Source: an uncultured Mycobacteriaceae bacterium (GTDB lineage Bacteria > Actinomycetota > Actinomycetes > Mycobacteriales > Mycobacteriaceae). Taken from it: a DNA stretch of 64,000 nt. Of the stretch, positions 4,786-16,460 are shown piece by piece (position 1 is the first letter of the stretch; each line of letters begins with the position of its first letter). The notes below the pieces were generated by a model. The model did no database searches. It had not been told where the DNA came from and saw only the letters and a list, made by a program, of their open reading frames with translations. The translations under genes and the position numbers were made by a program. The stretch is taken from NCBI GenBank assembly GCA_902826815.1, contig CADEGF010000001.1:160640-224639 (forward strand). The letters run 5' to 3'.

Positions 4786-5535
4786 ATGATCCAGGCGGTC
4801 GATAGGGCCCTGCGCATCCTCACGGTGCTGCAGGGCGGTCGTCGGATGAGCCTGAGTGAGATCGCCTCCGCCATCGGGCTGGCACCATCGACGGTGCACG
4901 GCCTTGTCCGGACGCTGCTGGCGCACGGAATGGTTGCCCAAGAAGCCGATTCAGGGCGCTATCGGCTCGGGCCGGCGACTCTTCGGTTGGGCAACACCTA
5001 CCTCGACACGCTCGAACTGCGCTCCCGTGTTGCTATCTGGGCCGAGGGCCTGGCTCGACGCACCGGCTGCGCCGTCCGCACGGCGGTGCTGCTGTTCGAC
5101 GAGGTTGTCGTCGTCGCGCACGAACCGCGGCCCGACGGCACCCGACAGATGGCAGAGGTCGGAATCGTGATCCCAGCTCACGCCAGCGCATTGGGCAAGG
5201 CGCTGCTGGCCTTCACTCCCGACCACAAGCTCGACGAACCGCTTCGCAGCATGACCGGAGAGACGATCACCGACAACGCCGAGTTGACTCGACAGCTGGA
5301 GAGCATAAGCGCGACAGGCATCGCCACCGAGGTGGAAGAAGCGGTGCTCGGCGAATGCGCAGCTGCCGCACCGGTCTTCGATGCCTCAGGAGAGGCGGCA
5401 GGCGCCATCGGGGTCGTCGTGCCAACAGGGCGTTGGCCCCTTGCACCCGAGATCATCGATGCGCTGCGCGACACGGCGCGCACCGTGTCACGTGAACTCG
5501 GCGCGCCTGCATGGCCGACACGTCCTACGAGTTGA
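4786..5535 (+). CDS. IclR family transcriptional regulator, likely controller of the dha operon
   Basis: 249-residue regulator with an N-terminal winged helix (about residues 4-65, including LSEIASAIGLAPSTVHGLVRTLLAHGMV) and a C-terminal IclR effector domain (about 75-245; the segment HASALGKALLAF is typical). The ATG follows a GAGGGGGG ribosome site. It is transcribed away from the channel-dhaKLM operon across a short region holding a strong palindrome, the usual arrangement for a local, autoregulated repressor or activator. The effector is probably dihydroxyacetone or its phosphate (inference). Its 3' end overlaps the convergent ABC gene by 11 nt. Confidence 0.9.
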   Translation: MIQAVDRALRILTVLQGGRRMSLSEIASAIGLAPSTVHGLVRTLLAHGMVAQEADSGRYRLGPATLRLGNTYLDTLELRSRVAIWAEGLARRTGCAVRTAVLLFDEVVVVAHEPRPDGTRQMAEVGIVIPAHASALGKALLAFTPDHKLDEPLRSMTGETITDNAELTRQLESISATGIATEVEEAVLGECAAAAPVFDASGEAAGAIGVVVPTGRWPLAPEIIDALRDTARTVSRELGAPAWPTRPTS

Positions 5536-7345
5536 CGTTCTGCGCCTCGTACAGCCGTTTGTACAGGCCGCCTTCGGCCATCAACGCGCGGTGATCGCCC
5601 TGCTGCGCGATGCGCCCGTGCTCGAGCACCAGGATCCGATCTGCAACGGCGGCGATGAAATCCATATCGTGGCTGATGACCACGCACGTGCGATCCCGCG
5701 CGTAGTCCCGGATGACACCGGTCAGCCTTGCCCGTTGGTCGGCATCGAGGTTCTCCGTCGGTTCGTCGAGCAGAAGGACCTCGGGCCGACGCAACAGACA
5801 GCGCGCGAGCGCGATGAGCCGCTTCTGGCCGCCGGAGGGCACCTGTACGTCCATCACCGTGTCGTACCCGTCACCCATCTTCGCCGGGTCGACGATGACC
5901 GAGTGCACGTTCGCCTGTCGGCAGGCGTCCTCGACGTCGGCATCGGTTGCGGCAGGGCGCGCCAACCGGATGTTCTCGCGGATCGTGTCCTTGGTGAAGA
6001 ACGGAAACTGCGCGAGCTTGGACACCTGATCGCGCAGCGACGCGATCGACACCCCCGAAATGTCGTTGCCGTCAAGGGCAATCCGTCCGCGCTGCGGGTC
6101 GAGGAACCGGAGCAGCAGGTTGAACACCGTCGACTTGCCCGACCCGATACCGCCGACCAATGCGACGGTCTCGCCTTCTTCGATCGAGAACGACAACCCG
6201 TCGAGCACGTTCCGGCCAGGCGAGTATCCGAAGGTCACATCGTCGAACACCAGGTTGCCGTGTACTTCTCCGAGTGCGACGGCACCCGCCGATTCCACGA
6301 CCGACGGGCGGGTGTCGAGCAGTTCGTAGGTGGACGCGGCACTCGGTGCGACCGAATGGTAGGTGGTGTAGGCGCCCATCACCCGTTGCGCGGCGCTGAA
6401 CATCGTCGGCACCATCCCGGTGAACACGAGCAATCCTGCGAAGGTCAGGCCGAAGGTGGCGCTGAAGGCGATTCCGACGAGCAGCACCACGACGGTGGAC
6501 AGTGCGATGAACACCTGCGACCCGTTCGCCGTCGCCTGCATCCACAGGACCGAGGTCGCGGTGCTCTTCGCTGAGTGTTCGGAGACCTCGCGGAATCGCT
6601 TGCTGCGCAAGGGCTGGGCATTGAACGTCTGGATCTCGGAGATGCCGCTCACCGTCTGCTCGAGCTCTGCGGACATCGCCCGGTCGGCCGTCATCACCCG
6701 GCGGGTGGCGGCCTGGACGCCGCGCCCTGCGAACCTCAGCGCGATCAGGGCCAGTGGTGTGAGCACCAGCGCGGCGACCGTCATCTGCGGTGAGATCGCC
6801 ACCAGGTAGCCGACCGCGACGATCAAGACAACCGAGTCGATGACCGGTGGAAACAGGCAGTCGGTCAGAAGACGTTGCACGCCAGAGGGTTCGACGGTCA
6901 CCCGCTGGATGAGTTCCCCGCTGCGCGACCTCGTGAAGAAGTCCAGCGAAAGCGTCTGCATATGGTCGTGAACGCGCTGCCGGATATCCACCAGGAGCAT
7001 CCTGTCGACCTTCGCCCCGACCCAGGTGTTGACGAAGTACATCAGCTGGGTCAACAGCAGGGCACCGGCCCACGTCGCCAGGAGCACGCCGAACGGGACG
7101 GAACCCGCCACTGCGCGCAGCAGCCCGTCCTCCCTGGCGACGAGGGGGCCACGTAAATCCCATACGCCGCTGAGGTTTCCGCTCTTCCCGGCGTCGGCGA
7201 TCACCTGCACCATTGGACCGAACGCCGCTGCAGCTATGTATGGCAATGCGGCCGCCACCACGCCCAGCAGGAGCGAGACCCCGATGGGGCCGCGCACGGC
7301 CCGCAGCATGCTCAGGCTGCGCCACACCAGTCCGCGCGACGCCAT
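5525..7345 (-). CDS. ABC transporter, fused permease and ATPase (exporter type)
   Basis: 606-residue half-transporter. The N-terminal membrane domain spans about residues 15-325, with several hydrophobic helices. The ATPase domain follows with Walker A GGIGSGKST (398-406), a Q-loop near 446, signature PSGGQKRL (503-510, the first position Pro instead of Leu), Walker B LLLDEPT (524-530) and the switch His in VVISHDMD. It works as a homodimer, or with a partner not seen here. Substrate is unknown. It begins directly after the TetR stop codon (no gap), so the TetR almost certainly controls it. The pair is downstream of the GAT/RpiR genes with only 17 nt between and could be co-transcribed with them. 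Confidence 0.92.
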   Translation of the reverse strand: MASRGLVWRSLSMLRAVRGPIGVSLLLGVVAAALPYIAAAAFGPMVQVIADAGKSGNLSGVWDLRGPLVAREDGLLRAVAGSVPFGVLLATWAGALLLTQLMYFVNTWVGAKVDRMLLVDIRQRVHDHMQTLSLDFFTRSRSGELIQRVTVEPSGVQRLLTDCLFPPVIDSVVLIVAVGYLVAISPQMTVAALVLTPLALIALRFAGRGVQAATRRVMTADRAMSAELEQTVSGISEIQTFNAQPLRSKRFREVSEHSAKSTATSVLWMQATANGSQVFIALSTVVVLLVGIAFSATFGLTFAGLLVFTGMVPTMFSAAQRVMGAYTTYHSVAPSAASTYELLDTRPSVVESAGAVALGEVHGNLVFDDVTFGYSPGRNVLDGLSFSIEEGETVALVGGIGSGKSTVFNLLLRFLDPQRGRIALDGNDISGVSIASLRDQVSKLAQFPFFTKDTIRENIRLARPAATDADVEDACRQANVHSVIVDPAKMGDGYDTVMDVQVPSGGQKRLIALARCLLRRPEVLLLDEPTENLDADQRARLTGVIRDYARDRTCVVISHDMDFIAAVADRILVLEHGRIAQQGDHRALMAEGGLYKRLYEAQNVNS

Positions 7346-7990
7346 CTAGCCCGCCGTCGCGGCCGCCCCGGTTCTGTCCTGCCCGCCGGCCTCCTTGTCG
7401 CTCGGTGAACCCTTCAGACCCCGCCAGAACAGGTTGATCATCAGCTCGGCGGCCTCGCCGACGTCGGCATCGCCGGTGCTGACGCGGTTGGCCACCGCCT
7501 CGCCCGCACCGACGAGCGCGACCGCCATCATGTTGAAATCGGCGTCGGGCTCGGGGTTTCGGGTGCCCGACTGCAGCAGGCGCGCGACCAGGTCGATGAT
7601 CCGCTCACGACCCTCGCGCACGGAGTGTGCGAACGCTTGCGAGTTGGTGGCCTGGGTGTACAGCACGATCCACGACGCGCGGTTGGTGTCTATGTAGTTC
7701 AGGAACGACAGCACCGCGTTGCGCAGCAGATCCTTCGGGCTCTGGCTGAAGTCGATCTCGGCCCGCACCGTTTCGACGAAGCGCCCGAGTTCGCGATCCA
7801 GGCAGGCCCCGAAGAGTTCCTCCTTGGAGCCGTAGTAGAGGTACAGCATCGGCTTGGAGATCTCGGCCTGCGCGGCGATGGCGTCCATCGATGTCTCGTG
7901 ATAACCGTTGATCGAGAACATCTGCACCGCGGCGTCGAGCATCTGCTGCTCACGGACGGCACGCGGCAGTCGTTTTGTGCCACCTGCCAT
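7346..7990 (-). CDS. TetR family transcriptional regulator
   Basis: 214-residue TetR protein starting MAGGTKRLPRAVREQQM. The frame is open upstream, but that part lies over the RpiR gene, so the ATG at 7990 is preferred. The helix-turn-helix is at about residues 30-60 (MDAIAAQAEISKPMLYLYYG), followed by an all-helical ligand domain. The stop codon abuts the ABC transporter start, a common layout for a drug- or lipid-responsive repressor of its own exporter. No clear operator fits in the 17 nt before it, so regulation may act at a promoter further upstream, or inside rpiR. Confidence 0.9.
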   Translation of the reverse strand: MAGGTKRLPRAVREQQMLDAAVQMFSINGYHETSMDAIAAQAEISKPMLYLYYGSKEELFGACLDRELGRFVETVRAEIDFSQSPKDLLRNAVLSFLNYIDTNRASWIVLYTQATNSQAFAHSVREGRERIIDLVARLLQSGTRNPEPDADFNMMAVALVGAGEAVANRVSTGDADVGEAAELMINLFWRGLKGSPSDKEAGGQDRTGAAATAG

Positions 7991-8007: not shown

Positions 8008-8862
8008 TCAGGGCAGCAGTTCGGCTCTGCGCTGCTCCTCCCAGAGCGCCATCCGCGTGCGTGCAGGCTCTCCGAGCGCGTCCATCACCAGCGGAATCAA
8101 CAGCTCGGTGAGCAGAAATCCGGCGGCCATGCTCTGGTATGTCGTGCCGACGGTGCTCGACGCGGCGAGCACGACTTCGGCCTCTGGCGCGACCGGACAC
8201 GCCAGGTCGTCGGTAACGAGAAGGACGGTCGCCCCCGCCCGGTGCACGCGCAGCGCGAGATCGGCGACGCTGCGTTGATAGCGGTGGTAGTCGAAAAGCA
8301 CGACGACGTCGTGGCGCGCCAGTTCGAGCATCGCGCCCATATCGGTGCCGTCGGGATCGGCCAGCGGCCGCACGCCGGGTCTCAGCTGTTCGAGGTGGGC
8401 GGCCAGGTGCACGGCGAGCAGGTGCGAGAACCGCCCGCCATGCAGATAGACCGTCCTTCCGGTGTCCGACAGCAGCGCGACCGCGGCCTCGAGCGCCGAG
8501 GTCGGCAGCGCCGCAAGCGTTTCGGTGGCTCGTTCGTTCTGGGCACGGGCCTGTCGGAGGAGCCGTTCCAGCAGACCTCCTGCGGGCGGAGCGTCCGGCA
8601 GCCGGGTGATCGGGCCGTTCGATTGGGCCGACAGTTCGGCGCGCAGTGCGACCTGCAGATCGGTGAACCCGTCATAGCCGAGCGACTGCGCGAACCGCAG
8701 CACGGTCGGCGGGCTGACCTCGGCCCGTTCGGCCAGCCGAGCCGCACTGGCCAGCCCGGCGCTCGGGTAGTCGGCGAGCAGCGCGCGGCCGACCCGACGC
8801 TCGGCCTTGCTCAGCGTCGGCAATGCCGAGCCGGCCCGCACCGCGACCGTTTCGACGGTCAT
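8008..8862 (-). CDS. RpiR/MurR-type transcriptional regulator (HTH plus SIS domain)
   Basis: 284 residues. The N-terminal RpiR helix-turn-helix covers about residues 15-80 (SAARLAERAEVSPPTVLRFAQSLGYDGF), and the SIS phosphosugar-type domain about 120-260, including TVYLHGGRFSHLLAVHL. It overlaps the upstream glutamine amidotransferase gene by an ATGA, so the two are co-translated. SIS regulators of this kind often sense phosphosugars, but those beside amine or nucleobase catabolic genes can sense other ligands. From its position it probably regulates the divergent gamma-glutamyl ligase operon and its own operon through the AT-rich region at 9694-9757 (inference). Confidence 0.9.
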   Translation of the reverse strand: MTVETVAVRAGSALPTLSKAERRVGRALLADYPSAGLASAARLAERAEVSPPTVLRFAQSLGYDGFTDLQVALRAELSAQSNGPITRLPDAPPAGGLLERLLRQARAQNERATETLAALPTSALEAAVALLSDTGRTVYLHGGRFSHLLAVHLAAHLEQLRPGVRPLADPDGTDMGAMLELARHDVVVLFDYHRYQRSVADLALRVHRAGATVLLVTDDLACPVAPEAEVVLAASSTVGTTYQSMAAGFLLTELLIPLVMDALGEPARTRMALWEEQRRAELLP

Positions 8863-9665
8863 CGCGTCGACGGGGTCATCAGCGGCTGCGTCGTCATCGA
8901 CAGGTCATACATCGAGATCGCGGTCACGCTTTCCGACTCCAGCGGTTGCCAGTCCAGGTCACCGAAACCCGTCGACGCGATCACCACCCTGTCCTGGTCG
9001 GTGCGCGCCCAGCGCATGCCGAAGTAATCCTCGAGGTGCTCGGCGGGCAGATCCGCCGCGGTGATCTCGGCGATGTCCTCGTCGGGCAACCGGCTACGGG
9101 CGTGCGCGTGCACGGCGATCATCTGATCCTCGGCGAGTATCAGCGCGTTCAGGCTGGCGGTCGGGAAGATCTCGCGAAGCTGCGATACCGCCCGACGGAC
9201 CGCCTCTGCCAGGTCAGGCGACGAGGCGCGATGCTGGCGGATCAGGCCGAAATACCGTTCGCTGTCCGTGGACCCGACGATCGTGGCTGCGATCTCCGGT
9301 GTCAACAGCTCGTCGAGCTCACCGATGGGTTTGATGGAACCGTTGTGCGCCATGGCAATTCGCTCGGCGAGGAACGGGTGCGAATTCTCCGGGCGCACCG
9401 CGATGCCGGTGGTCGCCCAGCGCAGGTGGACCAGCGTGGCGGCCGACCGCTGGTCGTGGGTCGCCGCGGCGAAGTGCGGATCGTCGGCCCCGGTGCCCGC
9501 CGACACCTCGATGTTCGGGGGGTGACCGGGTAGCCGGACTCGCGCGATGCCCCAGCCGTCGCCGTGGATCTTCGTCAGCGCGACGAAGTCCGCCAAAACG
9601 CGCTCACCGACGGCCTGCGACACCGAAATCGGGGTGGCGGAGACGACACCCAGCAGTCGGCACAT
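8859..9665 (-). CDS. Class II glutamine amidotransferase
   Basis: 268 residues with the nucleophile Cys exposed right after Met (MCRLLGVVSA), followed by KIHGDGWGIARV, LRWATTGIAVRPENSHPF and MAHNGSIKP. These are the Ntn-type glutaminase motifs seen in the YafJ/EgtC group. The protein has no synthase domain, so it is a stand-alone amidohydrolase acting on glutamine or a gamma-glutamyl amide. It is divergent from a glutamine-synthetase-like ligase gene 126 nt away. It could remove gamma-glutamyl groups from intermediates made by that ligase, a role filled by the unrelated PuuD in the E. coli putrescine pathway. That role is inferred from context. Confidence 0.88.
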   Translation of the reverse strand: MCRLLGVVSATPISVSQAVGERVLADFVALTKIHGDGWGIARVRLPGHPPNIEVSAGTGADDPHFAAATHDQRSAATLVHLRWATTGIAVRPENSHPFLAERIAMAHNGSIKPIGELDELLTPEIAATIVGSTDSERYFGLIRQHRASSPDLAEAVRRAVSQLREIFPTASLNALILAEDQMIAVHAHARSRLPDEDIAEITAADLPAEHLEDYFGMRWARTDQDRVVIASTGFGDLDWQPLESESVTAISMYDLSMTTQPLMTPSTR

Positions 9666-9693
9666 GGCTGAACCCCTTCGTCGGACCCATATC

Positions 9694-9757
9694 TGAAATT
9701 TAATGAATCAATCCTCTAGCGCAGATCTTAGAGATTATGAAACATTTATGACATATT
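9694..9757. promoter_or_regulatory. AT-rich divergent control region of the amine cluster
   Basis: Within a very GC-rich neighbourhood this stretch is strongly AT-rich and carries ATGA-starting repeats: ATGAATCA, ATGAAACA and ATGACATA, spaced about 29 and 11 nt. It lies between the amidotransferase gene and the ligase gene and is the likely site of both promoters and of an RpiR operator. A GAGGAGG ribosome site at 9781-9787 precedes the ligase ATG. No exact RpiR consensus can be claimed by eye. Confidence 0.5.
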
Positions 9758-9791
9758 CGGCTCGCACACTCGTGACGTACGAGGAGGTTCA

Positions 9792-11111
9792 ATGCCGCTG
9801 CCCAAGGACGTCGAGGAACTGCGCGCGCAGGGCGTCGGCCTCGTCGCGGGTTCGATCACCGACCTGGCGGGCGTGACGCGGGCGAAGTACGTGCCACTGC
9901 GCAGGCTCGAGTCCTTTCAACGCGCAGGCATGGGCGTCTCCCCGTCGTGGAGCGTCTTCTGCGTCGACAGCGGTATCGCGTTCACCCCGAACATCGGCGT
10001 GGACGGCGACCTGCGGATCCGCATCGATCCCGCCGACCTGCGACTGATCGACGACGGCATCGTCTGGGCGCCGGGTGACCTCACCCAACAGCACGGCGAG
10101 GCCGCGGATCTGTGCACACGCTCGCTGCTCAAGGGCCTCGAAGCAGCCCTGAGTGCAAAGGGTCTGACCGCGCTGATCGGCGCGGAGCTCGAGTGCACGA
10201 TGCTGTCTGCCGACGCGGGCCACGCATCGACCGACCCGTGGTCGCCGTACAGTGTGCGCACCTCGCTGGACCGGTCGGCGTTCCTCGTCGACCTGGCCCG
10301 GGCGGCCGAGCGCGCCGAGCTGCCGGTCGAGCAGATCCACACCGAATACGGCCACGATCAACTCGAGGTCTCCCTCGCGCCGTCCAGCCCGGTCGCCGCC
10401 GTCGACACCGTCGCGGCGACCCGCATCGTGATCGGTCGGGCGGCCGCCAGGCACGGCTTGCGCATTTCCTTCTCCCCCGTGCCGTTCGCAGGGGAGGCGG
10501 GCAACGGCGCCCACCTGCACCTGTCGATTGCCGACGGCGATGGGCCGCTGTTCTCCGGCGGCGACGGCCCACACGGCATGCGATCCGCGGGCGGGTCGGC
10601 GATCGCCGGGGTACTACAGACACTGCCCGACCTCCTCGGCGTTTACGCGGGCTCGGTGCTGTCATCTGCACGGCTGCGGCCCGGCAACTGGGCGGGTGCG
10701 GCGCAGTGCTGGGGCCTGGAAAACCGCGAAGCCGCACTGCGTTTCGTCGCCGCCACCCCTGGCACCCCGCACGGTGCCAACATGGAGCTCAAACTGATCG
10801 ACCCGAGCGCCAACCCCTATCTCGCGGCCGTGTCGTTCCTCGGCAGCGCGCTGCTCGGCATCGACCAGGCTCTCGAGTTGCCCGCCGAAGTGCCCAAGGA
10901 CCCGGCCAAGGCGGCGCAGCCACCGCCGATGCTGCAGACCGATCAGCAGACGGTGATCAAGGCGTTGGAGACCTCACTGATAGCCGCCGACCTGCTGTCC
11001 GCGTCGGTGATCGAAGGGCTGGTCGCGGTGCGCAGCCACGAGATCACCACCTACGGAGACCGGCCACCGGCCGAAACCGCGCAGGCCCTGCGCCTGGCGT
11101 GGAGCTGTTGA
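9792..11111 (+). CDS. Glutamine-synthetase-like gamma-glutamyl ligase (GlnA-type, FluG-like)
   Basis: 439-residue class I glutamine-synthetase fold. The metal/substrate motif EYGHDQLEVSL and the conserved loop GEAGNGAHLHLS are visible, as is the C-terminal MELKLIDPSANPYLA segment. The strong ribosome site GAGGAGG fixes the start. In place, it heads an operon of permease, aminotransferase and amidohydrolase, with an amidotransferase and RpiR regulator divergent. This context fits a ligase that gamma-glutamylates an amine for catabolism (as PuuA or the GlnA2-4 paralogues of actinobacteria do) rather than ammonia assimilation. The amine substrate is not evident. I did not see the adenylylation-site region of true GlnA1. 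Confidence 0.88.
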   Translation: MPLPKDVEELRAQGVGLVAGSITDLAGVTRAKYVPLRRLESFQRAGMGVSPSWSVFCVDSGIAFTPNIGVDGDLRIRIDPADLRLIDDGIVWAPGDLTQQHGEAADLCTRSLLKGLEAALSAKGLTALIGAELECTMLSADAGHASTDPWSPYSVRTSLDRSAFLVDLARAAERAELPVEQIHTEYGHDQLEVSLAPSSPVAAVDTVAATRIVIGRAAARHGLRISFSPVPFAGEAGNGAHLHLSIADGDGPLFSGGDGPHGMRSAGGSAIAGVLQTLPDLLGVYAGSVLSSARLRPGNWAGAAQCWGLENREAALRFVAATPGTPHGANMELKLIDPSANPYLAAVSFLGSALLGIDQALELPAEVPKDPAKAAQPPPMLQTDQQTVIKALETSLIAADLLSASVIEGLVAVRSHEITTYGDRPPAETAQALRLAWSC

Positions 11112-11148
11112 CCACTCGAACCCAGATCTGTAAGAGAAGGAGACGGCG

Positions 11149-12639
11149 ATGACCACAGATACCCCGGCCGGAGCGTCGGAAGAGGTCGATCAGATCCCGC
11201 GGCGTCAGCTGCCCTTCTGGGTGGCGCTGGCCCTGTCGGTCGCCCTCGTCGGGCCGACCCTGGCGATGTCGGGCAACGGGCAGGGCCTGATCGGCACCGT
11301 GGGGAAGTCCATCCCCCTGGTGTTTCTCATCGGGCTCGTCGGCGTATCGCTGGTCGGCTACAGCTTCGTCCGGCTGACCCGCCATCTCAACCACGCCGGG
11401 TCGTCGTACGGCTTGGTCGGCGGCACCATCGGGCCGCGGGCCGGGTTCTTCGCAGGCTTCGCGATGCTCGGCGCGTATTGGATGTTCTCGATCGGCACTC
11501 TCGCGTTGACCGCCGCCTTCACCAACGCTTTCATCGGCGAGCTGCAGCCCGACAGCGAAACCCCTTATCAGCCACCGTGGCTGGTGATCGTCCTGATCGC
11601 CGTCGTGATCTCGTTCCTCCTCGCTGGCCGTGATATCAGGCTGCTGGCCAAGGTCCTGCTGGCCATCGAGGGCCTCGGCATCCTGGCCATGGTCGTGCTC
11701 GTCGTCGTGATCTTCGCGAAGGGCGGTGCGCCGTCGACGGGTATCGACTTCTCGGTGTTCTCCTTCTCCGGCGGCGTCGAGCCATCCGCAGTGCTCGCGG
11801 GCGTCGTCGCCGCGTTCCTGTCCTGGGCAGGCTTCGAGGCGTGCGCATCGATGGGCGAGGAGACCGACAACCCGGGACGCAACATCCCGCGGGCCCTGGC
11901 GGGCACGCTGCTGCTGACCGGCGTCCTGTTCGTCGTCGTGATGTTCGCCCAGGTCAACGGCTTCGGCACCGACCAGGCCGGGCTGGACGCATTCCAGAAT
12001 TCGGGAAACACGTTGGGCGACTTGGGCGGAACCTACGTCGGCCAATGGTTCGGCCTTGTGGTCATCTTCACCGCGATCGTGTCGGCGTTCGGGTGCCACC
12101 TGGCCACGTCGGCGACGTCGGGGCGGATGCTGTACGCGTTCGCGCGTGACGGGTTCGGGCCGAAGGCGCTCGCGCACATCCACGCCGCGACCGGCGGGCC
12201 ACGCCGCGCCACCTGGTTGGTGGTGATCGTCGCAGTGGTGGTGAACGTGATCTGCGCGGCGGCCGGCTGGCCCGATATGGGCACCGGCAACGACGCGATC
12301 GACACCTACTTCCTGTTCGCCGTCGCCGGTTCGGTGTGCCTGATGGTGTGCTACCTGCTGGTGGAGATTGCCGCAGCATGGTTCGTCGGCGCACCCAAGT
12401 TCCTCGACGTGCACGGGGGCAAGGGCAAGGTGCCCGGTCTCGTACTCCCGATACTCGGCGCGGTGGTGATCGTGGTCGTGTTGTGGTTCAACGTGAAGGA
12501 CGCTGAAACTGCCACCGCGGCACCGCTACTCGGGCTGTACTGGTGCGTGATCGGGTTGGTCATCGCGCTTGCGGCGTCCGGCATCGCCAAACGTGTCGGC
12601 GAATCTCTGTCGGCCGAGTTGAACCTGAAGGCACAGTGA
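11149..12639 (+). CDS. APC superfamily amino acid/amine permease
   Basis: 496-residue membrane protein with about 12 hydrophobic segments and no ATPase. The start of the first helix, PFWVALALSVALVGPTLAMSGNGQGL, and the conserved TSATSGRMLYAFARDGFGP loop are typical of APC transporters. It lies 37 nt after the ligase gene, behind an AAGGAGA ribosome site, and its stop overlaps the aminotransferase GTG (GTGA). It probably imports the amine or amino acid processed by the cluster. The exact substrate cannot be read from sequence. Confidence 0.9.
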   Translation: MTTDTPAGASEEVDQIPRRQLPFWVALALSVALVGPTLAMSGNGQGLIGTVGKSIPLVFLIGLVGVSLVGYSFVRLTRHLNHAGSSYGLVGGTIGPRAGFFAGFAMLGAYWMFSIGTLALTAAFTNAFIGELQPDSETPYQPPWLVIVLIAVVISFLLAGRDIRLLAKVLLAIEGLGILAMVVLVVVIFAKGGAPSTGIDFSVFSFSGGVEPSAVLAGVVAAFLSWAGFEACASMGEETDNPGRNIPRALAGTLLLTGVLFVVVMFAQVNGFGTDQAGLDAFQNSGNTLGDLGGTYVGQWFGLVVIFTAIVSAFGCHLATSATSGRMLYAFARDGFGPKALAHIHAATGGPRRATWLVVIVAVVVNVICAAAGWPDMGTGNDAIDTYFLFAVAGSVCLMVCYLLVEIAAAWFVGAPKFLDVHGGKGKVPGLVLPILGAVVIVVVLWFNVKDAETATAAPLLGLYWCVIGLVIALAASGIAKRVGESLSAELNLKAQ

Positions 12640-13943
12640 GCACGCTCTACGAACGCGACGAAGCCACGATCGCAGGCATCGAGAAGCTGCGGTTCTTCCC
12701 GCTCGAGGTGGTGTCGGGACACGGCTCGACGTTGGTCGATCCCCAGGGTCGCGAACTGCTCGACCTTTCGGCCACCTGGACGGCATGCGGGCTCGGCCAC
12801 GGCCATCCCGCCGTCGCCGAGGCGGTCAGCAGGGCGGTCCGCACGGCGCCAGGCGCGGGCGGGCTCTCGGCGGTGCATCCCGATTCTGTTGGCCTCGCCG
12901 AAGATCTGCTGGCCCTGGTGCCAGGAAGCGGGGAACGGCGAGTCTATCTGGGCCATGCGGGATCTGACGCCAACGACGTCGCGCTGCGGGCCTGCCGACA
13001 CGCGACGGGAAAACGTACGGTGATCGCGTTCGAGCACAGCTATCACGGCGGCGTCGGCGTCGCGATGGGCGTCTCGGGCGTGCACGTCGACGCGGGAGCA
13101 CCACCCGACGCCGACGTGGTGTTCCTGCCGTACCCCAACCCCTTCCGGCCGTCGGCCGCGGGTATCGACGCTGACGTCGCCGAATGCCTGAACCTAGCCG
13201 AGAAGCACCTTGCGACCGGATCCATCGCCTGTCTGATCGTCGAGCCGATCCTGTCCGACGGTGGCCTCGTGGTCCCGCCCGACGGCTTCCTCGCACAGTT
13301 GCACGACCGCTGCCGCGCCAACGGGGTGCCGATGATCTGCGACGAGGTCAAGATGGGCCTGGGCCGCCCCGGCACCATGCACGCCTTCGAGCACGACAAC
13401 GTGGTGCCCGACATCGTGACGTTCGGGAAGGTGCTCGGCGGCGGCCTGCCGCTTTCTGCGGCGGTCGGCCCGGCGGCGATTCTCGACGAACCGCCCGCCG
13501 CGGCCCTGCTCACCACCGCCGGAAACCCAGTGTGCACGGCGGCGGGGCGGGCGGTGCTGGCCACCATCGTCGCCGAAGGTCTGGTTGGCCGCGCAGCGAA
13601 AATCGGTGCGGCTCTTGCCGATGCACTGCGGGGACTGGCCGGGTCCCCGGGCTCCGACCGCATCGGCGAGGTGCGCGGCCGCGGTCTCGCGATCGGACTC
13701 GAGCTTGTCGACCCGCAGACCGGTGACCGCGATCCGCGCTTCGCCGCACAAGTGGTCTACCGTGCGTGGGAGCTGGGGGCCGTTGTCTTCTACGTAGGTG
13801 GGAATGTTCTGGAGATCACCCCGCCGCTGGTGCTCTCCGAGGACGAGGCCGCACGCGCCGCCGCCATCCTCGGCGACGCCATCGCCGACGCCGCCGCAGG
13901 GAAGGTCGATGCAGAGGAGGTCGCGCGCTATGCCGGTTGGTGA
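12636..13943 (+). CDS. Class III pyridoxal-phosphate aminotransferase
   Basis: 435 residues from a GTG start (STLYERDEATIAGIEKLRFF), chosen because it overlaps the permease stop by 4 nt. A longer in-frame reading upstream is only permease sequence in another frame. Class III features include GHAGSDANDVALRACRHATG, the Asp in MICDEVKMGLGRPG, and the PLP-binding Lys in TFGKVLGGGLPLSAAVG. The family covers omega-amino acid, 4-aminobutyrate and dialkylglycine transaminases. In this operon it would remove the amino group of the imported compound or of a product released after gamma-glutamyl processing. The C-terminal 14 nt overlap the amidohydrolase start. Confidence 0.9.
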   Translation: MSTLYERDEATIAGIEKLRFFPLEVVSGHGSTLVDPQGRELLDLSATWTACGLGHGHPAVAEAVSRAVRTAPGAGGLSAVHPDSVGLAEDLLALVPGSGERRVYLGHAGSDANDVALRACRHATGKRTVIAFEHSYHGGVGVAMGVSGVHVDAGAPPDADVVFLPYPNPFRPSAAGIDADVAECLNLAEKHLATGSIACLIVEPILSDGGLVVPPDGFLAQLHDRCRANGVPMICDEVKMGLGRPGTMHAFEHDNVVPDIVTFGKVLGGGLPLSAAVGPAAILDEPPAAALLTTAGNPVCTAAGRAVLATIVAEGLVGRAAKIGAALADALRGLAGSPGSDRIGEVRGRGLAIGLELVDPQTGDRDPRFAAQVVYRAWELGAVVFYVGGNVLEITPPLVLSEDEAARAAAILGDAIADAAAGKVDAEEVARYAGW

Positions 13944-15117
13944 GGTTGCCGACGTCTTCGACGGCGTCGAGGACCGGGTGCCCCAACGGTTGGCCGACCA
14001 TATCCGCGGCATCCAGCTCGTCGACCATCACGTGCACGGCGCGTTCAACAAACCCGTCGACCGGGCCGCGTTCGAGGCGTCGATCAACGAGGGCTCAACC
14101 GATCCGGTCCCGGACTTCATGACGATGTTCGACTCACCGCTCGGGCTTGCGATCCGACGTTGGTGCGCACCGGTTTTGGGACTGGAAGCACACACATCCG
14201 CCGAAGACTACTGGGCGCGACGCAGCGAGCTCGGGCCCGACGAGCTGACCACCGCGATGCTGGCGCGGGCAGGCGTTTCGCGCTGGGTGGTGGACACCGG
14301 GTTCAAGGGTGACCTGCTCACCACCCCAGAGCAGATGGCCGATCTGAGCAGCAGGCCGGCGTCGTCAATCCTGCGTCTGGAGCGGCTCACCGAGGACCTG
14401 CTCGAAGGAGGGACCACCGATCCCGTCGACTTCCCCGACGCGTTCCGATCGGCGCTGCAGCAGGCGGTGGACTCGCCGGACGTCGTCGGCACCAAGACGA
14501 TCGTCGCGTACCGGACCGGATTCGACATCGACTGGTCACGCCCGACCGATATGACGGTGGTCGACAACGCCACCGCTATCCGCGCGCAGGGCAACGATTT
14601 ACGGGTCGACAGCCCGGTGCTGATCGCGTTCGGCGTGCACGCGGCAGCCGAGCACGGGCTGCCGCTGCAGGTACACGTCGGGTTCGGCGACCGGGACCTC
14701 GATCTGAACCGGACCGACCCGCTGTTGCTGCTGCCGTTGCTGCGAACCATGGCGTCCGTGCCGGTGCTGCTGCTGCACTGCTATCCGTTCCACCGGCAGG
14801 CCGGCTATCTCGCCCAGGCCTTCGACAACGTGAATTTCGATGTGGGCCTTGCCATCAACTATCTCGGCAGTCGGGCGACATCGCTGGTCGCCGAGGCACT
14901 CGACACCGCACCGTTCGCCAAACAGCTGTACTCCTCTGATGCGTTCGGGCCGCCGGAACTACACCTGCTCGGCGCAGTGCTGTGGCGGCGCGCCATGGGG
15001 CTCGTCCTCGGCGAGTGGGTCCGCAGTGGCGACTGCGGCGAAGCTGATGCGATCGCCATCGTCGACATGATCGGCGTGCACAACGCCGAACGGGTCTACG
15101 GTCTCCAGGGCCTCTAG
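13930..15117 (+). CDS. Amidohydrolase family 2 protein, FluG N-domain type
   Basis: 395-residue TIM-barrel metal hydrolase. The metal-binding HxH appears in VDHHVHGAF. Later signatures are LQVHVGFGDRDLDLNR, VLLLHCYPFHRQAGYLA, and the Asp in QLYSSDAFGPPE. In fungal FluG and plant NodGS-type proteins this domain is fused to a glutamine-synthetase domain; here the two are separate genes of one operon. A hydrolytic or decarboxylating action on an amide or ring of the cluster's substrate is plausible. The ATG at 13930 overlaps the aminotransferase end by 14 nt. Its stop codon shares a CTAG with the convergent esterase gene. Confidence 0.87.
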   Translation: MPVGEVADVFDGVEDRVPQRLADHIRGIQLVDHHVHGAFNKPVDRAAFEASINEGSTDPVPDFMTMFDSPLGLAIRRWCAPVLGLEAHTSAEDYWARRSELGPDELTTAMLARAGVSRWVVDTGFKGDLLTTPEQMADLSSRPASSILRLERLTEDLLEGGTTDPVDFPDAFRSALQQAVDSPDVVGTKTIVAYRTGFDIDWSRPTDMTVVDNATAIRAQGNDLRVDSPVLIAFGVHAAAEHGLPLQVHVGFGDRDLDLNRTDPLLLLPLLRTMASVPVLLLHCYPFHRQAGYLAQAFDNVNFDVGLAINYLGSRATSLVAEALDTAPFAKQLYSSDAFGPPELHLLGAVLWRRAMGLVLGEWVRSGDCGEADAIAIVDMIGVHNAERVYGLQGL

Positions 15118-16460
15118 ACCACACCGCTGGTCGCGGGGCGCAGCCGGGCGATGATGCCGTCGAGGTCGATGGCGAACTGATCGGGCCGGAAGACGTGGCC
15201 GCCGGGCACCTCGTGCCGTTCATGCGGGATGCCGGCCTCGCTGAGCTTCTCCCCGAATTCGCGTTGGCCGGCAAGCACCTGGGTCTCCTGCACGGTGTCG
15301 AACCAGTTGACCGGGTCCGGACTGGTGCCCGCGACGAGGAAGATCCGCTTGTTGCGGTAGCTGTCGATGCGCTCGACCGGGTTGTCGGCGCTGACCCTGG
15401 CCTCGTCCCACGGCACGCCGTAGACCGTGGCGCCGCCCAGTTCCACGACCGCCGAGCTCAAGTTTGCCCAATGCACGACGAGGCCGGAGTCGCGCCGCAG
15501 GCTCGCCGGGCCGGAATGGGCACTCACCGAGGCGAAGTGGCCGTAATACTTGGCCGCGTACTTCAGCGCACCGAACCCACCCATCGAGAACCCGCCGACT
15601 GCGCGGCCGTCGTACTCGGCGTACGTTCGGAAATTCGCCTCGATCCACGGGATCAGCTGGGCGATGTGGAACGTCTCCCAGTTCCGTGGGCCGACGAACG
15701 AGCCGACCGGGTTGGAGTACCAGCCCGCCTGCCCGCCGTCAGGCATCACGACGATGATCGGCTTTCCGGCGGTCCAACCGCGGATGCCCAGAAAGTCGAA
15801 CTGGCGGAAGTCCGCGGCACCGCCGTGGAGCATGTAGAGGACGGGATAGCGGAGTCCGCTGGTGCGGTAGTCATCGGGAAGCAGGACGTTGACGCCAGGA
15901 TTCCAGCCGATCGCAGGGGTTTGGAACCGGTAGTACCACAGGCGAGGGTCGTTCTCGTTGCGGTCCACGATCGTCAGGCCGAACCCGTCGCTGCGCCCCG
16001 CGAATATGACAAGCGCCTGCCCGACGCCGATGACGGCGGGATCGGCGATGTCGTTGACGGTGGCGATCGGCGGATACAACGCGGCGTCACCATAGAAGCG
16101 CGCGGCCAACGCCGACATCGTGTCCCCGGCAACAGTCGTGTATACCGTGATCTCCGGGATGATCAGCCGTTGCCCGACATCGATGACGTCCGGATCGGCG
16201 ATCCCGCTGGCGGTGGCGATCAGCCGGTACAGCTCCGCGTCACCATAGAAGCGCAACGCCAACGCCGACAGCGTGTCCCCAGCGACAACCGTGTATCTCG
16301 TGAAGTCGGGAAGTATCAGGCGCTGCCCGACATCGATGACGTCGGGATCGGCGATTCCGTTTGCGGTGGCGATCAGCCGGTGCAGTTCCGCGTCACCATA
16401 GAAGCGCAACGCCAATGCCCACAGCGTTTCCCCCGCGACGATCGTATGTGTTCTGACCAT
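15114..16460 (-). CDS. Esterase (antigen-85/esterase-D-like fold) with three N-terminal LysM repeats
   Basis: 448 residues. Residues 6-158 are three LysM repeats of 51 residues each (T(I/V)VAGxTLxALALRFYGDA...). Residues 165-440 form an alpha/beta-hydrolase of the putative-esterase family with nucleophile Ser in GGFSMGGFGALKYAAKYYG, an upstream LHGG oxyanion motif and a C-terminal catalytic His in VPGGHVFRPDQF. LysM repeats bind peptidoglycan or chitin-type glycans, so a cell-wall-attached esterase is the natural guess. But there is no signal peptide or Tat motif: the first LysM begins at residue 6. Either export is unconventional, the start is misjudged, or LysM acts inside the cell. It is convergent with the amidohydrolase gene. 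Confidence 0.9.
   Translation of the reverse strand: MVRTHTIVAGETLWALALRFYGDAELHRLIATANGIADPDVIDVGQRLILPDFTRYTVVAGDTLSALALRFYGDAELYRLIATASGIADPDVIDVGQRLIIPEITVYTTVAGDTMSALAARFYGDAALYPPIATVNDIADPAVIGVGQALVIFAGRSDGFGLTIVDRNENDPRLWYYRFQTPAIGWNPGVNVLLPDDYRTSGLRYPVLYMLHGGAADFRQFDFLGIRGWTAGKPIIVVMPDGGQAGWYSNPVGSFVGPRNWETFHIAQLIPWIEANFRTYAEYDGRAVGGFSMGGFGALKYAAKYYGHFASVSAHSGPASLRRDSGLVVHWANLSSAVVELGGATVYGVPWDEARVSADNPVERIDSYRNKRIFLVAGTSPDPVNWFDTVQETQVLAGQREFGEKLSEAGIPHERHEVPGGHVFRPDQFAIDLDGIIARLRPATSGVV
15987..16445 (-). repeat. Three tandem 153-bp repeats encoding LysM modules
   Basis: Three direct copies with a 153-nt period encode the LysM modules. Long stretches are nearly identical at DNA level, for example the block encoding RFYGDAEL and the block encoding IADPDVIDVGQRLI. 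The third copy is the most diverged. This points to recent tandem duplication and possible copy-number variation between strains. Confidence 0.85.

What the first reader, a model, noticed from the sequence alone, without database searches (positions are those of the whole stretch)
8008..15117. Amine/nitrogen cluster combining a GS-like ligase with a FluG-type amidohydrolase, class II amidotransferase, class III aminotransferase, APC permease and RpiR regulator
The sequence shows two divergent, tightly coupled units around one AT-rich control region. The logic resembles the E. coli Puu pathway: a gamma-glutamyl ligase, permease, gamma-glutamyl hydrolase and transaminase. The differences are that the hydrolase role would fall to an unrelated class II amidotransferase, there is no amine oxidase or aldehyde dehydrogenase, and an amidohydrolase that other organisms fuse to the GS domain (FluG/NodGS) is present as a separate gene. 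I know of no described pathway with exactly this set. The substrate could be an unusual amine, amide or heterocycle.
Basis: partly seen in the sequence, partly recalled or inferred. Interest (0 to 1): 0.78.

Follow-up and report, generated by a model that had tools for sequence, protein, structure and literature searches.

The report
Likely amino-amide or lactam breakdown cluster
Six soil-mycobacterium genes, read at first as an odd amine pathway, are centred on a likely racemase for amino-acid amides and lactams (not an aminotransferase) and probably let bacteria use such compounds by tagging them with glutamate, which would give an enzyme known mainly from biocatalysis a likely place in nature.

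Summary
The six genes are present as described, tightly coupled and divergent around a 126-bp AT-rich region. One assignment changes the story. The "class III aminotransferase" is a homologue of alpha-amino-epsilon-caprolactam (ACL) / amino acid amide racemase: 49-50% identical to two solved racemases, keeping their catalytic residues, and lacking the Arg that the genome's three GabT carry. The set is conserved: all six genes in 26 of 26 genus loci examined, though only 30 of 248 genus genomes have the racemase. Related racemases lie within 9.5 kb of a GS-like ligase in 81 of 93 loci, including Klebsiella-type and rhizobial plasmids. The hydrolases vary as modules: class II GATase + FluG-type amidohydrolase (52), M20 hydrolase + amidohydrolase (5), or FGase family + isochorismatase family (19); none of the 93 mixes the last with the others. 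Best model: uptake of an alpha-amino amide, lactam or (thio)lactone; racemisation; gamma-glutamylation; hydrolysis of the amide/ring; removal of glutamate by the GATase. Substrate and step order are inferred, not shown. It works like the Puu/GlnA4 gamma-glutamyl pathways but is not a member. New variant of a known kind.

The parts
8008..8862 (-). RpiR/MurR-family regulator (HTH_6 + SIS); likely local regulator
   Evidence: Pfam PF01418 + PF01380; present in 26 of 26 genus loci
8859..9665 (-). Stand-alone class II glutamine amidotransferase (N-terminal Cys2); proposed gamma-glutamyl hydrolase
   Evidence: PF13230/PF13522; EgtC model 49.4 bits against cut-off 218.65; profile reaches EgtC structures; C2,R82,W83,N108,G109,D134 invariant in 54 of 54 loci with a hit
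9666..9791 (.). Divergent AT-rich control region with conserved core (window: TTAGAGATTATGAAACATTTATGACATA)
   Evidence: 126 bp, 55.6% AT; conserved core; near-tandem 11-mers TTATGAAACAT/TTATGACATAT
9792..11111 (+). GS-like gamma-glutamyl ligase; flap Glu of glutamine synthetase replaced by Trp300
   Evidence: PF00120; best solved hit 4hpp; W300 in the 80 of 81 loci that cover it
11149..12639 (+). APC-family permease (AA_permease_2), proposed uptake
   Evidence: PF13520; Liv-type ABC genes instead in other loci
12636..13943 (+). ACL/amino acid amide racemase homologue (fold-type I PLP), usually annotated as class III or aspartate aminotransferase family; GTG start
   Evidence: 6gio 5.8e-120, 2zuk 3e-115 against 9.7e-69 or weaker for other enzymes; residues; tree
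13930..15117 (+). FluG/NodGS N-terminal-type metal-dependent amidohydrolase; proposed hydrolase of the amide/ring bond
   Evidence: PF04909; only solved relative found 2qpx; metal-ligand positions conserved

Best explanation
The six genes form a self-contained catabolic or detoxifying unit for a chiral alpha-amino compound whose carboxyl is masked as amide, lactam, ester or (thio)lactone. Proposed steps: (1) the APC permease imports it; (2) the PLP racemase interconverts its enantiomers so that both can be used; (3) the GS-like ligase spends ATP to put a gamma-glutamyl group on the amino group; (4) the FluG-type amidohydrolase cleaves the amide or opens the ring, giving a gamma-glutamyl-amino acid; (5) the class II GATase removes glutamate, releasing a usable amino acid; (6) RpiR controls the divergent promoters. 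Shown by sequence: gene set, co-conservation, family and active-site assignments, interchangeable hydrolase modules. Inferred: substrate, order of 2-5, which hydrolase cuts which bond, direction of regulation.
For: Racemase identity: (1e-115 to 1e-120 for amide/ACL racemases, 9.7e-69 or weaker for isoleucine epimerases, other racemases and aminotransferases); 50% to the 5m46 chain and 49% to the amide racemase 6gio; Y136/D208/K239/K265 in 93 of 93 loci; Glu393 where the genome's three GabT have Arg. One Klebsiella plasmid record already labels its copy '2-aminohexano-6-lactam racemase' (H26). An Ensifer cluster racemase is 77% identical to 5m46, which nests with cluster genes in the tree. GS-like ligase within 9.5 kb of the racemase in 81 of 93 loci. 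Hydrolases: 52 GATase+amidohydrolase, 5 M20+amidohydrolase, 19 FGase+isochorismatase, 0 of 93 joining FGase or isochorismatase with any of the other three. Ligase group and hydrolase type recombine (L050, L133, L136, L139). FGase-family SCO1615 is a predicted gamma-Glu-Gly amidohydrolase, EgtC strips the glutamyl part of its substrate, and M20 amidohydrolases cut N-acyl amino acids (recalled): all three fit one gamma-glutamyl-amino-acid slot.
Against: No substrate or activity was tested. Eight of 93 racemase loci show no ligase or hydrolase of these types within 9.5 kb (L134 on a 7.3-kb contig), so the racemase may act without glutamylation; L127 has no ligase in the usual place either, and L119 has ligase but no GATase between RpiR and ligase. 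GS-like + amidohydrolase pairs also occur without racemase, so the amidohydrolase may have a role unrelated to lactams, or may itself be the gamma-glutamyl hydrolase. The FGase+isochorismatase pair was seen only in Pseudomonadota and the other modules only in Actinomycetota, so absence of mixtures is partly phylogeny. In L112 and L113 the M20 gene is 5-7 kb from the racemase, not in its operon. Neighbouring amino-acid genes differ between loci (ornithine cyclodeaminase, threonine synthase-like, D-cysteine desulfhydrase-like) and point to no single product. One FGase locus (L055) carries an annotated M20 fragment.
Confidence: 0.58

Rival explanations
1. Puu-like amine catabolism as first proposed: an amine is gamma-glutamylated, the class III enzyme works as a transaminase on the amine or on a later product, and the GATase hydrolyses.
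For: GS-like ligase, permease and candidate gamma-glutamyl hydrolase are present; the PLP enzyme belongs to Pfam Aminotran_3.
Against: Racemase-type residues and no carboxylate Arg; no oxidase or aldehyde dehydrogenase among the nine proteins scanned; NF045547 score 176.5 against cut-off 650.
Confidence: 0.1
2. Same enzymes, but the purpose is detoxification or salvage of reactive cyclic by-products such as homocysteine thiolactone, homoserine lactone or ornithine lactam rather than nutrition.
For: A. obae ACLR exchanges the alpha-proton of homocysteine thiolactone (passages of PMC11391342); ornithine cyclodeaminase lies in line with the set in L113.
Against: A universal by-product would predict broader retention than 30 of 248 genomes; a dedicated permease suggests an external substrate; the ornithine cyclodeaminase was found at one of 131 loci searched.
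Confidence: 0.15
3. Different order: the amidohydrolase removes the gamma-glutamyl group, and the GATase or M20 enzyme, or the racemase, acts on a later product.
For: GS-like + amidohydrolase pairs exist with no GATase or racemase match beside them; FluG fuses those two domains.
Against: The GATase keeps the glutamine-recognition residues and is the part exchanged for M20 while the amidohydrolase stays.
Confidence: 0.12
4. Biosynthetic cassette making a gamma-glutamylated D-amino acid derivative.
For: A ligase and a racemase occur together.
Against: Uptake-type transporter and two hydrolases in the set; the window's nearby ABC exporter gene shows up in only one of 26 genus stretches, as a partial 50% match (L013).
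Confidence: 0.05

Closest known systems
ACL racemase / amino acid amide racemase (PDB 2zuk, 5m46, 6gio)
   Same: 49-50% identity to 5m46 and 6gio, same catalytic residues, same missing Arg (6gio differs at the Trp); 5m46 clusters with cluster-encoded proteins
   Different: Treated as an isolated biocatalyst in the passages seen (PMC7431475, PMC11391342); those passages name no gene cluster or pathway for it
E. coli Puu pathway (recalled)
   Same: gamma-glutamyl ligase, permease and gamma-glutamyl hydrolase logic
   Different: No oxidase, no ALDH, no class I GATase; a racemase and an amidohydrolase instead; ligase far below the putrescine-ligase cut-off
S. coelicolor GlnA4 ethanolamine cluster (PMC6529630)
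   Same: GS-like ligase, putative permease in several species, divergent regulator, FGase-family hydrolase and glutamine amidotransferase gene (passages)
   Different: Dehydrogenases instead of racemase and amidohydrolase; ethanolamine is achiral
FluG / NodGS fusion (PMC6478659)
   Same: Amidohydrolase with the same metal-ligand pattern and a Trp-type GS-like ligase
   Different: Separate genes here, with racemase, GATase and permease
EgtC of ergothioneine biosynthesis
   Same: Class II GATase family member that strips the glutamyl part from its substrate (passage of PMC10805701)
   Different: Only 49.4 bits to the EgtC model, cut-off 218.65

Membership tests
ACL/amino acid amide racemase | Closest solved relatives are ACL/amide racemases, well ahead of aminotransferases | tested here: met
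   1e-115 to 1e-120 against 9.7e-69 or weaker
ACL/amino acid amide racemase | Catalytic Tyr, Asp, Lys pair and no substrate-carboxylate Arg (numbering and roles recalled; the Asp and a Lys appear as Ala in PDB variants) | tested here: met
ACL/amino acid amide racemase | Racemises amino lactams/amides | not testable with these tools
   needs purified protein
GABA-type class III aminotransferase | Glu-Arg pair, the Arg binding the substrate carboxylate (role recalled) | tested here: not met
   Asp208, Lys239, Glu393 where three GabT have Glu, Gln, Arg
Puu pathway | PuuA-type gamma-glutamylputrescine synthetase | tested here: not met
   NF045547 176.5 bits, cut-off 650
Puu pathway | Oxidase, aldehyde dehydrogenase and class I GATase in the cluster | tested here: not met
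   none among the nine proteins scanned
GlnA4 ethanolamine cluster | Alcohol/aldehyde dehydrogenases beside the ligase | tested here: not met
   cluster content from passages
EgtC | NCBIfam TIGR03442 cut-off | tested here: not met
   49.4 against 218.65 bits
FluG-type amidohydrolase | HxH, Lys, His, His, Asp metal site as in 2qpx/FluG | tested here: met
   of 63 loci, HxH kept in 62 (1 not covered), Lys 63, His249 63, His283 62 (L061 has Leu), Asp 62 (1 not covered)
FluG/NodGS fusion | Amidohydrolase and ligase in one polypeptide | tested here: not met
   separate ORFs 9792-11111 and 13930-15117
Non-ammonia GS-like gamma-glutamyl ligase | GS flap Glu replaced (Trp in the P. aeruginosa ligase and FluG) | tested here: met
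   W300
Non-ammonia GS-like gamma-glutamyl ligase | Glutamylates an amine other than ammonia | not testable with these tools
   needs enzyme assay

The most novel reading that the evidence does not exclude
A widespread, modular gamma-glutamylation pathway for deracemising and degrading alpha-amino lactams, amides or (thio)lactones, assembled repeatedly around ACL racemase from non-homologous ligases, hydrolases and transporters in Actinomycetota and Pseudomonadota. It would be the natural setting of ACL racemase and would assign the FluG/NodGS amidohydrolase domain a reaction: opening the amide or ring of a gamma-glutamylated substrate. Natural substrates could be siderophore-derived cyclic ornithine/lysine hydroxamates, ornithine lactam or homocysteine thiolactone.
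Probability: 0.4. Interest if true: 0.8.

Novelty: new variant of a known kind. Interest (0 to 1): 0.62.

Why it matters
ACL racemase is used in biocatalysis, and the paper passages read here name no pathway for it. A conserved gene context with a gamma-glutamyl ligase and interchangeable hydrolases makes its natural role testable. It would also suggest a reaction for the FluG/NodGS amidohydrolase domain: PMC6478659 (passages) says the activity of the bacterial enzyme that can replace FluG's N-terminal half is unknown. And it would correct the aminotransferase labels that most listed copies carry, including on enterobacterial plasmids.

Tried and rejected
Transaminase reading: rejected on residues and closest relatives. 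EgtC, Puu and GlnA4 membership: rejected on cut-offs or missing parts. Ornithine lactam as the single substrate: suggested by ornithine cyclodeaminase in L113, not found at any other of the 131 loci searched. Siderophore link: receptor genes near L143 and L146, not followed to the other loci, left as a hint. RNA elements (gathering threshold) and tRNAs in the window: none. Reports of this gene set: the listings of searches show none by title and abstract start (two returned no paper; one listed 10 of 572); only open-licence papers are held, so this is not proof of absence.

Rows and limits told: one search kept 80 of 308 relatives. L051 was dropped before the tally as the same contig as L071. 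The 93 loci are not independent (many mycobacteria). The nine loci outside the three full modules and the 'none' class are L061, L098, L104, L107, L131, L138, L140 (contig ends close to the cluster), L119 (contig ends after the racemase, but the GATase is missing where the contig does cover its usual place) and L127 (contig ends after the racemase; a GATase-like match 7 kb away, no ligase). Three of the 30 positive genus genomes (G067, G098, G127) gave partial matches and were not fetched. M20 was sought only with the five M20 proteins first seen in GATase-less loci, so its mutual exclusion with the GATase rests on that. In one search truncated and reference rows are separate labels and inflate the number of changes. 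Both trees are quick ones (SH-aLRT only), and one search used a thinned set of mycobacteria. A first tblastn script failed on a missing argument and was rerun.
Full report
What is there. The window belongs to a 6.87-Mb genome; its nearest named relative in the racemase tree is Mycolicibacterium stellerae. RpiR (8008-8862) and a class II GATase (8859-9665) run leftwards with a 4-bp overlap. A GS-like ligase (9792-11111), an APC permease (11149-12639), a class III PLP enzyme (12636-13943) and an Amidohydro_2 protein (13930-15117) run rightwards; the last three overlap by 4 and 14 bp. The 126-bp gap is 55.6% AT against 32.9% for the window and holds a core conserved among relatives. The genome has 13 GS-like matches; the next best to this one is 43% identical.

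The PLP enzyme is the key. Its closest solved relatives are amino acid amide racemase 6gio (5.8e-120), the 5m46 chain (4.3e-119) and ACL racemase 2zuk (3e-115). Isoleucine 2-epimerase follows at 9.7e-69, other racemases at 1e-65 to 1e-67, and GABA aminotransferases from 1.6e-64. It is 50.0% identical to 5m46 and 49.1% to 6gio. That 5m46 is the Rhizobium freirei ACL racemase, and 6gio the Ochrobactrum anthropi enzyme, is recalled; the 5m46 entry itself reads 'aminotransferase class-III', and sibling entries with Ala at the catalytic Asp and at a Lys are visible. Aligned with the three GabT proteins of the same genome, the window protein has Asp208, Lys239 and Glu393 where GabT have Glu, Gln and Arg. 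Y136, D208, K239 and K265 are invariant in 93 of 93 loci, W48 in 92 and E393 in 91, the rest lying outside the aligned stretch; 6gio has Ala at W48. Residue numbers and roles in the known enzymes are recalled. One Klebsiella plasmid record already names its copy '2-aminohexano-6-lactam racemase'; the other listed annotated copies are called aminotransferases. Published activities: ACL racemases act on the amino lactam and on amino acid amides, an O. anthropi one on esters (passages of PMC7431475), and the A. obae enzyme on homocysteine thiolactone (passages of PMC11391342).

The other enzymes. In the ligase the flap Glu of glutamine synthetase is Trp300 (alignment), as in the gamma-glutamyl ligase and FluG compared in PMC6478659 (passage); it is Trp in the 80 loci where the position is covered, of 81. 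The GATase keeps Cys2 and the glutamine-site residues R82, W83, N108, G109, D134 in 54 of 54 loci (roles recalled from GlmS), shows no other Pfam domain, and its profile reaches EgtC structures. The passage seen in PMC10805701 says EgtC 'eliminates the glutamine fraction' of a gamma-glutamyl intermediate. The amidohydrolase has one solved relative in these searches, 2qpx, the one used for FluG's N-terminal half, and the metal-ligand positions are kept, with one exception, H283L in L061.

Conservation. In the genus 30 of 248 genomes carry the racemase at E up to 1e-100. I fetched 26 of the other 29: all six genes, in the same order and divergence, in 26 of 26. In the order 4 of 298 genomes match (own, one same-genus, two other families); in a phylum draw only the own genome of 396 (E up to 1e-95 in both). 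One of the two other families has all six genes (L052); the other (L051) has five on a 6.9-kb contig that ends inside the GATase gene. GS-like genes without racemase are found too: 11 of 61 genomes drawn from the family, own included, have a GS-like match at E up to 1e-100, and the 11 loci other than the window's from that search show no racemase beside them.

Beyond the phylum. A plasmid search gave 85 records, 45 Klebsiella (E up to 1e-60). The one enterobacterial locus opened, a Pluralibacter plasmid, has RpiR, GS-like (43%), APC (52%) and racemase (63% over the matched part), but FGase (N-formylglutamate amidohydrolase) and isochorismatase-family genes in place of GATase and amidohydrolase. 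The Ensifer sp. PDNC004 cluster racemase is 77% identical to 5m46, and 5m46 nests among cluster-encoded racemases.

Module tally. A named genome scan kept 80 of 308 relatives. With plasmid loci and L052, 93 loci were typed within 9.5 kb of the racemase: 52 ligase + GATase + amidohydrolase; 19 ligase + FGase + isochorismatase family; 5 ligase + amidohydrolase + M20 hydrolase (Pfam M20 in 5 of 5; adjoining the ligase, amidohydrolase or racemase in L081, L124, L139, 5-7 kb off in L112 and L113); 8 with none of these; 9 partial. None of 93 joins FGase or isochorismatase with GATase, amidohydrolase or M20; one FGase locus (L055) has an annotated 115-codon M20 fragment that the tblastn threshold did not count. 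The ligase is present in 81 of 93. The M20 loci are scattered on the racemase tree (5 changes, at least 3 forced by starred branches). The ligases fall into two deep groups, and ligase group does not follow hydrolase type: L133, L136 and L139 combine the 'proteobacterial' ligase group with amidohydrolase plus GATase or M20, while L050 combines the 'actinobacterial' ligase group with FGase/isochorismatase. Repeated assembly of unrelated parts around one racemase argues for a fixed set of functional slots.

Mechanism. Unrelated families alternate in one slot: class II GATase, M20, and one of the FGase/isochorismatase pair. FGase-family SCO1615 is a predicted gamma-glutamylglycine amidohydrolase in S. 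coelicolor (passages); the L113 M20 protein passes the NCBIfam 'amidohydrolase' cut-off (259 against 153.75 bits), a family that cuts N-acyl amino acids (recalled). All fit hydrolysis of a gamma-glutamyl-amino acid. That leaves the FluG-type amidohydrolase, and by elimination the isochorismatase-family protein (nearest named models biuret hydrolase and RutB, below cut-off), for the amide or ring bond. The proposed order is uptake, racemisation, glutamylation, amide/ring hydrolysis, deglutamylation. Substrate and order are inference; confidence 0.58.

Novelty. Gamma-glutamylation pathways are known (Puu, recalled; GlnA4, passages of PMC6529630). A racemase-centred version was not seen in the listings of searches, which cover open-licence PubMed Central text only. 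I file it as a new variant of a known kind.

Noticed in passing
window 15114-16460(-): Protein with LysM repeats followed by a putative esterase domain; converges on the cluster with a 4-bp overlap at the stop codons.
   Followed up: no
window 5525-7990(-): MsbA/HepA-like ABC exporter with a TetR regulator directly upstream; a TetR match of 84-92% lies beside the cluster in 9 of the 26 genus loci.
   Followed up: partly
L050 (Pluralibacter plasmid pFB2.3) and 45 Klebsiella plasmid records: The racemase gene is carried on enterobacterial plasmids; in L050 the cluster lies near IS elements and arsenic-resistance genes. The Klebsiella records themselves were not opened.
   Followed up: partly
L127 3871-5379, L129 2000-3466: Threonine synthase-like genes (57% identical to each other; family for L129 only) beside RpiR, permease and racemase, with no GS-like ligase detected nearby.
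   Followed up: partly
L113 4364-5659: Ornithine cyclodeaminase (540.6 bits, cut-off 350) in line upstream of the cluster in Pseudarthrobacter albicanus.
   Followed up: yes
L143 11799-18406, L146 1-1685: TonB siderophore receptor genes close to two rhizobial clusters.
   Followed up: no
G000 whole genome: Thirteen GS-like matches in one genome, 11 of them at 31% identity or less to this one.
   Followed up: no
L049 racemase; L015/L080 amidohydrolase; L142 racemase: The gene matches in two pieces in these relatives, suggesting frame breaks or assembly errors.
   Followed up: no
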